Shown here piece after piece: positions 54,590 through 55,501 of a stretch of DNA of 64,000 nucleotides. The translations under genes and the position numbers were made by a program. The stretch comes from Austropuccinia psidii (lineage: Eukaryota > Basidiomycota > Pucciniomycetes > Pucciniales > Sphaerophragmiaceae), in contig JALGQZ010000013.1 of NCBI GenBank assembly GCA_023105745.1, positions 10,287,105-10,351,104 on the forward strand. The letters are read 5' to 3'. Each line of letters begins with the position of its first letter. The first letter of the stretch is position 1. The notes under the pieces are model-generated. The model was given only the letters and a program-made list of their open reading frames with translations. It made no database searches and was not told the origin of the DNA.

Positions 54590-55501
54590 TGTCTGACAAC
54601 GTGGTAAGACAAGAAAACATTGAAACAGCCTCAACAGTAACCAGCATTATCCCTGCCAGTACTGTCAATTCTGATCATAATAGCACTGTTATTGTGACTC
54701 AAAATAACCAGCCTGAACCAATATCTTCTGAATTGATTAACTTAGACATAAGTAATACCCTTCAGAAAGCTAAAAATTTGGCCAATAGTAAGTTTTTGAC
54801 GTAAAAATACTATTTTAAGCCTTTTTTAACCATAATTATGCCTTCAACCAGGTCAGGAGCCAGCTACAACCCCTCAAGCAGCTCCCAAAAAGGTAATAGA
54901 CGTGATTATGGCAGATGCCAACCAGGTACAGAAGGAAAAGGGTCAGTTGATGACTTCCAAACAACTAAAATGGGTCATTTTGAAGCTGATAATACAATTT
55001 TACCTTCAAAAAGAGCTGACACCGCCACAACAAGCCTCTGTGGACATATACAAAGCCAGCCACAGTGCATACAACAATGCACTTCAATTCAAAGAGTACC
55101 AGATCCTTGCAGACCTGTGGAAGAATTGCATGAATTCTTACCTGACAGTAAGAAAATTCTTGGGCCATCCCAACACTTGCAAATTGCTCAATGGATGGCA
55201 TCCATTGATGGAGAAGAAAAACATGATGCTTTTGACACTAGAATGGGGGAAAAACAACCCTCCACCACCCAAACCAGTGCCAAAAACAGCCCCAGTGGCC
55301 AGCAGCAGAAATTCCAACGTGAAAAATCAGCCACAAACTCCAAACAAGGGCAAAGGGAAGGCACCAGCCCCAAAACCTTACAGCCAGGGCTACAGAATCC
55401 CAAAGATTCAGCAGGATGCCATGGAAAATGTATTTCAGATGGCCAGAACCATGATGGAATTACAGAAGAAGGAGGAAGCCAGATTAAGGTTCCAGAAATG
55501 A
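54590..55501 (+). CDS. B2 ORF0: proposed spliced accessory protein, about 258 aa
   Basis: The exons are 54590-54787, 54852-54941 and 55014-55501. The exon 1 acceptor is AATTTTAG|TGTCTGAC. Intron 1 (64 nt) is AATA|GTAAGT ... CAACCAG|GTCAGG. Intron 2 (72 nt) is AAAGG|GTCAGT ... CAAAAAG|AGCTG. Intron 2 is a multiple of three without stops, so here it could also be retained (about 282 aa). Exon 1 encodes a Ser/Thr/Asn-rich acidic stretch without a methionine. Exon 3 has VDIYKASHSAYNNALQF, CMNSYL, GWHPLM, a Pro/Lys linker (KGKGKAPAPKPY), then YRIPKIQQDAMENVFQMARTMMEL. The motifs are conserved in B1, C1, C2, D1, F1 and F2. The stop TGA (55499-55501) overlaps a Gag-frame ATG (55498). There is no signal peptide or membrane segment. 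Function is unknown. Confidence 0.6.

What the first reader, a model, noticed from the sequence alone, without database searches (positions are those of the whole stretch)
54590..55501. Unrecognised spliced gene (ORF0) between the primer site and Gag, overlapping the polyprotein in the +1 frame
In families B, C, D and F the same three-exon model works. A short exon follows an AG|TGTYT acceptor, a donor leads into a 62-86 nt intron that removes the apparent Gag-Pol ATG, and a second 54-72 nt intron follows. All joins are phase 1 in B2, C1 and F1. The spliced length is about 258 aa in B2 and 259 aa in C1 although the exon and intron lengths differ. The amino-acid motifs shared between families (IY...Y, MNSYL, GW.P, KPY..YRIPK, VF.MART.ME) lie in this frame. 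Standard ORF calling would show only the 1974-codon frame and miss it. Ty3/Gypsy elements with an extra gene before gag are not a standard arrangement that I know.
Basis: partly seen in the sequence, partly recalled or inferred. Interest (0 to 1): 0.87.

Follow-up and report, generated by a model that had tools for sequence, protein, structure and literature searches.

The report
Spliced extra gene overlapping Gag-Pol
A very abundant jumping gene of the myrtle rust fungus carries a hidden, spliced extra gene that overlaps its main protein gene in another reading frame, and genome copies that look made from spliced RNA show that the splicing happens.

Summary
The finding is real. Window 54590-55501 (Ty3/Gypsy element B2) holds a three-exon gene, ORF0, in the +1 frame of the Gag-Pol N-terminus. 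The 240 database relatives listed are all Austropuccinia psidii. Decisive evidence: pattern searches of the window's own genome found seven element copies lacking introns exactly at predicted sites, as reverse transcription of spliced RNA would leave: three in family B, three in C, one in D (alignments 66, 106, 116). ORF0 is under purifying selection (dN/dS 0.14-0.54 in 11 of 11 comparisons; Gag-Pol frame 0.82-3.94). Intron 1 contains the Gag-Pol AUG, so splicing switches between Gag-Pol (unspliced) and ORF0 (spliced). 7,712 places keep the leader acceptor, 3 lack the leader intron. The protein is modelled as a helical bundle, basic linker and C-terminal helix, with no convincing Pfam family. 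Best guess: a regulator of RNA export or splicing, working like CERV of Cer1; that function is inferred. Closest precedents: Cer1 CERV and Ogre's upstream ORF.

The parts
52525..54361 (+). 5' LTR (1837 bp); 5-bp target duplication AAAAG at 52520-52524 and 62623-62627
54364..54381 (+). putative primer-binding site (TGGGGGCCC...), 2 nt after the LTR; tRNA not matched, end arbitrary
   Evidence: sequence; inferred from position
53778..54837 (+). 1060 nt without a single ATG, from inside the LTR to the Gag-Pol ATG
54362..54511 (+). end of the non-coding leader exon; its last base is the A of the ORF0 start codon
   Evidence: spliced copies
54512..54589 (+). leader intron (78 nt, GTGAGG...TTTTAG); removal joins A to TG, making the ORF0 ATG
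   Evidence: absent in 3 genomic copies (L013, L015, L017)
54590..54787 (+). ORF0 exon 1 (198 nt, no ATG inside)
54788..54851 (+). intron 1 (64 nt, GTAAGT...ACCAG); carries the Gag-Pol ATG
   Evidence: absent in L013 and L017 (B); its counterparts absent in L021-L023 (C) and L020 (D)
54838..54840 (+). Gag-Pol start codon; M, one or two residues, then TRSG..Y in B, C, D (TRNG..Y in F)
54852..54941 (+). ORF0 exon 2 (90 nt)
54942..55013 (+). intron 2 (72 nt, GTCAGT...AAAAAG)
   Evidence: absent in L013 and L017 (B), and its C counterpart absent in L022 and L023
55014..55501 (+). ORF0 exon 3 with stop; helical core, basic linker, KPYSQGYRIPK motif, C-terminal helix
   Evidence: model of relative P0001
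55498..55501 (+). ATGA: ORF0 stop overlaps an in-frame Gag-Pol ATG; not kept in C, D (F has TAATG)
54838..60762 (+). Gag-Pol ORF, 1974 codons; RT, RNase H, integrase in Ty3/Gypsy order; CCHC-like stretch by eye
60786..62622 (+). 3' LTR, 99.3% identical to the 5' LTR
17815..18726 (-). ORF0 of copy B1 (one stop inside)
12115..13033 (-). ORF0 of copy C1: exons 13033-12884, 12797-12666, 12599-12115
30310..31241 (+). ORF0 of a D copy (frameshift in exon 3 near 31070)
21595..22577 (-). ORF0 of the F copy (damaged)
42342..42845 (+). ORF0 exon 3 remnant of a second D copy
38744..39613 (-). ORF0 of a second C copy (damaged)
44255..44724 (+). ORF0 remnant of a third C copy

Best explanation
ORF0 is a second protein gene of these Ty3/Gypsy elements, expressed from spliced RNA. 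Shown: a leader intron (family B) and two coding introns exist; in B removal of the leader intron assembles the ORF0 AUG; removal of intron 1 deletes the Gag-Pol AUG; the ORF0 protein frame is under purifying selection; nearly all inserted B copies keep the leader intron. Inferred: unspliced RNA, whose roughly 1-kb leader holds no AUG in B2, is scanned to the Gag-Pol AUG inside intron 1 and is also the genomic RNA; spliced RNA makes ORF0. Most likely function, as a hypothesis: ORF0 is a regulator that lets intron-bearing genomic RNA avoid splicing and leave the nucleus, working like CERV of Cer1 or Rev of complex retroviruses, through its basic linker and helices. I put about 0.97 on the anatomy and about 0.5 on the regulator role; the confidence below is for the whole.
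For: Seven processed copies, control counts 0: L013 and L017 (B) lack all three introns, L015 (B) lacks the leader intron only, L022 and L023 (C) lack introns 1 and 2, L021 (C) and L020 (D) lack intron 1 only. L013 and L015 have LTRs on both sides and 5-bp target duplications, so they are true insertions. dN/dS of ORF0 0.14-0.54 in 11 of 11 comparisons (9 copy pairs, two of them in two pieces), Gag-Pol frame 0.82-3.94, third frame 0.62-4.25; third codon position of ORF0 fastest in 17 of 17 comparisons, which share sequences and are not independent. Few ATGs from primer site to exon 1 end: B2 0 against 6.2 expected, B1 0/6.5, D30 0/8.0, C1 1/8.3, F21 2/7.6; damaged C38 7/11.3, not significant. 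Nearest ATG upstream of the Gag-Pol ATG 1063 nt (B2), 817 (B1), 654 (C1), 1558 (D30). GC steps at the exon edges in B2. 7,712 unspliced against 3 spliced leader junctions. Linker net charge +7 to +11 in the four families.
Against: No RNA reads were available, so abundance and timing of spliced RNA are unknown. The split AUG is shown in B only, and of its three leader-spliced copies two read ATG and one, older, now reads ATT. The four C and D processed copies keep the leader unspliced; no leader-spliced copy was found in C (0 hits, one donor tested), and in D 4 of 4 ATG-anchored hits were not canonical splicing, so the ORF0 start in C and D is not known. L015 shows that leader-only spliced RNA exists, which would stop after 71 codons. 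Damaged copies F21 and D42 have a second ATG 8 and 5 nt before the Gag-Pol ATG. No RNA-binding family and no conserved export or import signal. Fold matches are weak and generic. Rarity of spliced copies could reflect packaging signals alone, without any ORF0 role.
Confidence: 0.6

Rival explanations
1. ORF0 is a structural or nucleic-acid-chaperone partner of Gag, made in quantity from spliced mRNA and packaged with the genomic RNA, not a regulator of export.
For: Basic lysine-rich linker and helical ends; Gag-Pol is a single ORF, so extra structural protein would have to come from elsewhere.
Against: Gag-Pol already has a CCHC-like stretch (CHICQSTTHLANTC in the translation; Pfam PF21890 only below cut-off). 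Nothing tested separates this from the regulator reading.
Confidence: 0.3
2. Spliced mRNA is bicistronic: ribosomes finish ORF0 at ATGA (55498-55501) and restart on the overlapping ATG to make a short-N-terminus Gag-Pol.
For: ATGA overlap in B2 and B1, TAATG in F.
Against: C has TAACC and D TAGAT with no ATG there; the M..TRSG-type start inside intron 1 is present in B2, B1, C1, D30, D42 and F21; the Gag-Pol frame over exon 3 is kept open against chance in B2 and C1.
Confidence: 0.1
3. The ORF0 frame is a by-product of conservation of the Gag-Pol N-terminus, and the introns are artefacts of reading the sequence.
For: The Gag-Pol frame is also open over the whole overlap in B2 and C1.
Against: dN/dS and codon-position pattern favour ORF0 in every comparison made; seven genomic copies lack exactly these introns.
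Confidence: 0.02
4. The intron-less copies arose by DNA deletion, not through spliced RNA.
For: Deletions do occur: L027 lacks about 32 nt before exon 1 without splice-site ends.
Against: Losses at three different introns and in three families, all precise at GT-AG or GC-AG ends; two loci lack all three.
Confidence: 0.02

Closest known systems
CERV of Cer1 (Ty3/Gypsy-related, C. elegans; PMC10309623, abstract, section 15 and passages read)
   Same: Accessory protein from a spliced multi-exon mRNA of an LTR element; an exon lies in another frame than gag; the element must save unspliced genomic RNA.
   Different: CERV is 517 aa, its exons 1-3 and 5 share the polyprotein frame; ORF0 is 255-258 aa, its overlapping exons 2 and 3 are in the +1 frame and end before the Gag body, and its AUG is split in B. 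Export function is shown for CERV only.
Ogre, Tat-lineage plant Ty3/Gypsy elements (PMC1142308 and PMC6317226, passages read; primary paper PMC2596294 not held)
   Same: Extra ORF of unknown function between leader and gag; element with a spliced intron.
   Different: The upstream ORF is about 550 codons; the Ogre intron separates GAG-PROT from RT-RH-INT. B2 has an uninterrupted Gag-Pol ORF and its introns lie at or before the Gag start. [quoted passage not shown]
Rev of complex retroviruses (as described in PMC10309623 section 15; that it comes from fully spliced RNA is recalled)
   Same: Comparable logic: a small protein lets unspliced genomic RNA leave the nucleus (hypothesis here).
   Different: No comparison with Rev was made; B2 ORF0 shows no export-signal excess.
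EVADE and BARE short-GAG splicing (PMC12786077, passages read)
   Same: Splicing separates messages of one LTR element.
   Different: There splicing makes a shorter Gag, not a new protein.

Membership tests
Ty3/Gypsy LTR retrotransposon | Two LTRs, TG...CA ends, short target duplication | tested here: met
   1837-bp LTRs 99.3% identical, TGTGAG...TTACA, 5-bp duplication
Ty3/Gypsy LTR retrotransposon | Domain order RT, RNase H, integrase | tested here: met
   Pfam RT at 1050-1206, RNase H 1273-1402, integrase H2C2 1526-1584 above cut-off; rve core 1600-1700 just below its cut-off
Spliced accessory gene of the CERV kind | Encoded by a spliced element mRNA | tested here: met
   processed copies; no RNA data
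Spliced accessory gene of the CERV kind | Sequence partly in another frame than the polyprotein | tested here: met
   exons 2 and 3 in the +1 frame
Spliced accessory gene of the CERV kind | Required for nuclear export of genomic RNA | not testable with these tools
   needs experiments
Spliced accessory gene of the CERV kind | Sequence homology to CERV | not tested
   CERV sequence not fetched
Ogre-type element | Extra ORF between primer site and gag | tested here: met
Ogre-type element | Intron between GAG-PROT and RT | tested here: not met
   Gag-Pol of B2 is one uninterrupted ORF 54838-60762
MIT-like three-helix domain | MIT fold | tested here: inconclusive
Known Pfam family | Match above the curated cut-off | tested here: inconclusive
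   B2 ORF0 and P0001 are below cut-off; among the 62 members DUF4535 matched 11 (best E 0.0024), TagH_SH3-like 10 (0.0049), Utp21 one (0.0004); cut-offs not printed for those members

The most novel reading that the evidence does not exclude
ORF0 founds a previously unknown class of LTR-element regulators in a rust fungus: a Rev/CERV-like protein whose start codon, in family B, exists only after splicing, while splicing of intron 1 removes the Gag-Pol start, so splicing switches the element between regulator and replication modes. It would have evolved independently of CERV and Rev and may help to explain how such elements filled a gigabase fungal genome.
Probability: 0.45. Interest if true: 0.87.

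Novelty: new variant of a known kind. Interest (0 to 1): 0.75.

Why it matters
Over 90% of the A. psidii genome is covered by transposable elements, mostly Gypsy (PMC8063080, abstract passage). Here one such element carries a second, selected gene that overlaps Gag-Pol and is switched by splicing, which an ordinary ORF list shows only in part. It gives a fungal system, with thousands of copies, for asking how retroelements keep intron-bearing RNA from being spliced. The intron-less copies also indicate that partly and fully spliced RNAs are sometimes packaged. The published gene prediction for this species used soft-masked scaffolds (PMC8063080, passage), so such genes may be missed there; in the MF-1 records relatives appear as lone hypothetical proteins.

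Tried and rejected
Function by homology: Pfam on B2 ORF0 and on 62 relatives or pieces gave nothing convincing; database names such as 'No apical meristem-associated' on some relatives were not matched by any such family in those scans. Fold searches gave only generic helical bundles; a second model was weaker (pLDDT 65.4) and was not searched. A Gag-Pol N-terminus search gave 0 hits at E <= 0.001 among 2965 candidates. The two ORF0 protein searches gave 601 and 2031 hits, of which only the best 120 each are shown, all from A. psidii MF-1, so presence in other rusts is not known. Export-signal pattern: one match in B2 against 2.5 in shuffles, none in C1 against 1.3; import-signal pattern: none in B2, four overlapping ones in C1 against 1.1 in shuffles, so at most a C-family lead. 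The ATGA restart idea was dropped as a general mechanism because C and D lack it. Leader splicing in C: 0 hits with one donor. In D, 4 of 4 ATG-anchored hits were not canonical: three acceptor G-to-A changes and one deletion of about 32 nt.

Full report
What was checked. The window lies in a 1.015-Gb genome of 84 contigs. The ORF0 relatives that the protein database lists all come from Austropuccinia psidii MF-1 (120 shown of 601 hits; 120 shown of 2031 hits); the rest were not seen. B2 is a Ty3/Gypsy element with 1837-bp LTRs, a 5-bp target duplication, and a single 1974-codon Gag-Pol ORF starting at 54838.

Gene model. Joining 54590-54787, 54852-54941 and 55014-55501 gives one open frame of 257 codons after the TG at its start, 258 with a Met. 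The equivalent model works in C1 (intact, 255 aa), in B1 (one internal stop) and in a D copy (frameshift in exon 3); the F copy and the second C copy are damaged. tblastn finds ORF0 outside family B at E from 9e-25 (C1) down to 1.9e-9 (the 44-kb remnant), while the Gag-Pol N-terminal frame reaches 2e-8 to 4e-4 there, and only 1.1 in the 42-kb copy. Some database models begin with the codon right after the TG of the AG|TG acceptor and run through all three exons (for example P0001, P0003, P0140); these are automatic predictions, not proof.

The start codon. Exon 1 has no ATG in B2, B1, C1 and D30; the damaged C38 and F21 have one each. Between primer site and acceptor the leader of B has a single A|GT, TATAA|GTGAGG. 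Joining it to AG|TGTCTGAC makes ATG TCT GAC. I predicted this before searching (note). The junction pattern, up to 3 mismatches, then gave 3 places and 0 in the control.

Processed copies. The exon 1-2 junction of B gave 1 place with 0 mismatches, control 0; the exon 2-3 junction gave 1 place, 0 mismatches, control 0, in the same copy. Locus C2:43.88 Mb (L009, L012, L013, L019) lacks leader intron, intron 1 and intron 2 exactly; locus C1:66.04 Mb (L011, L017), an older copy at 84-91% identity and truncated downstream, lacks all three as well; locus C2:75.78 Mb (L010, L015) lacks the leader intron only. The first and third have LTRs on both sides and target duplications AGGAA and GAATC. These copies need not be working ones: the first has two stops in ORF0, and the ATG of the second now reads ATT. 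Family D: 1 place with 3 mismatches, none at the join, control 0; L020 lacks intron 1 and keeps leader and intron 2. Family C: 3 places with 2 mismatches, none at the join, control 0; L021 lacks intron 1, L022 and L023 lack intron 1 and the GC-AG intron 2; all three keep the leader. L022 and L023 differ by about 5% and may or may not be independent events. So there are 7 loci in three families: intron 1 lost in 6, intron 2 in 4, the leader intron in 3. Reverse transcription of spliced RNA is the simple explanation.

How rare. The unspliced acceptor pattern of the same length and mismatch limit has 7,712 places (3,860 and 3,852 on the two strands) against 3 for the spliced one. The RNA that is inserted is therefore almost always unspliced at the leader, which means that the element somehow keeps its introns.

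Selection. In exon 3, in comparisons among B, C, D and F, ORF0 codon position 3 changes fastest in 17 of 17 (sequences shared between comparisons). Nei-Gojobori dN/dS is 0.14-0.54 in the ORF0 frame (11 of 11), 0.82-3.94 in the Gag-Pol frame and 0.62-4.25 in the third frame. Cross-family synonymous differences are near saturation (pS 0.71-0.73), so those ratios are rough; closer comparisons (B2-L011 0.31, C1-C38 0.17 and 0.32, D pair 0.19 and 0.24) agree, and the closest, B2-B1, is weaker at 0.54. The Gag-Pol frame in the overlap is therefore hardly constrained in amino acids, yet it is kept open in B2 and C1: synonymous reshuffles of ORF0 leave it open in 0.13% and 0.2% of cases (own codons), or 0 of 3000 each (pol codons pooled). 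My reading is that both frames are used, but that ORF0 is the one whose sequence matters here, apart from the conserved Gag-Pol start.

Leaders without ATG. From 53778 to 54837 in B2 there is no ATG; the nearest upstream ATG is 1063 nt away in B2, 817 in B1, 654 in C1, 1558 in D30. Shuffles of the segment from primer site to exon 1 end expect 6 to 11; observed are 0 in B2, B1 and D30, 1 in C1, 2 in F21 and 7 in the damaged C38, the last not significant. The damaged F21 and D42 have a second ATG close before the Gag-Pol ATG. This fits scanning to the Gag-Pol AUG in unspliced RNA. One of eight TATAWA motifs in the LTR lies at 53738; the transcription start is not known.

Mechanism. Splicing of intron 1 removes the Gag-Pol AUG; splicing of the leader creates the ORF0 AUG in B. 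One RNA thus gives Gag-Pol when unspliced and ORF0 when spliced. That the protein then promotes export or survival of unspliced RNA is inference from this logic and from CERV of Cer1, a spliced accessory protein needed for genomic RNA export (PMC10309623; abstract, section 15 and passages read). How C and D start ORF0 is open.

Known or new. Ten searches of 5.39 million open papers were answered, most with capped listings; I read passages of PMC1142308, PMC6317226, PMC8063080, PMC12210899, PMC10886601, PMC12786077 and PMC10309623. In what I saw there was no description of this gene, of introns before gag in a fungal LTR element, or of a split start codon in one; subscription papers and Repbase entries were not searched. 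PMC1142308 (2005) says that no introns upstream of gag had been reported in any LTR retroelement. I call it a new variant of a known kind: spliced accessory genes (Cer1) and extra upstream ORFs (Ogre) are known, but I found no report of this combination.

Noticed in passing
L027 (G000:C16:21243764-21243795, minus): A D-family copy lacks about 32 nt just before exon 1, without GT at the start of the gap, which happens to create ATG TCT; not canonical splicing and not explained.
   Followed up: partly
L024, L025, L026 (C12:25114577, C13:2178686, C14:34384876): Three D-family copies have A in place of G at the leader acceptor, which gives an ATG at the ORF0 start without splicing.
   Followed up: partly
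window 12665-12600 (minus): Family C intron 2 is a GC-AG intron, absent in two processed copies.
   Followed up: yes
leaders of C, D and F (near 13350, 30010, 22750): A similar leader stretch (CACATC..., then CTTTGAGT) is seen by eye in C, D and F but not in B; function unknown, perhaps a leader donor or packaging signal.
   Followed up: partly
database relatives of ORF0: Names such as 'No apical meristem-associated' and 'Secreted protein' on some ORF0 relatives were not matched by such a family in the Pfam scan of 62 members.
   Followed up: partly
window 55498-55501 and 17818-17815: In B2 and B1 the ORF0 stop and an in-frame Gag-Pol ATG overlap as ATGA; not kept in C and D.
   Followed up: yes
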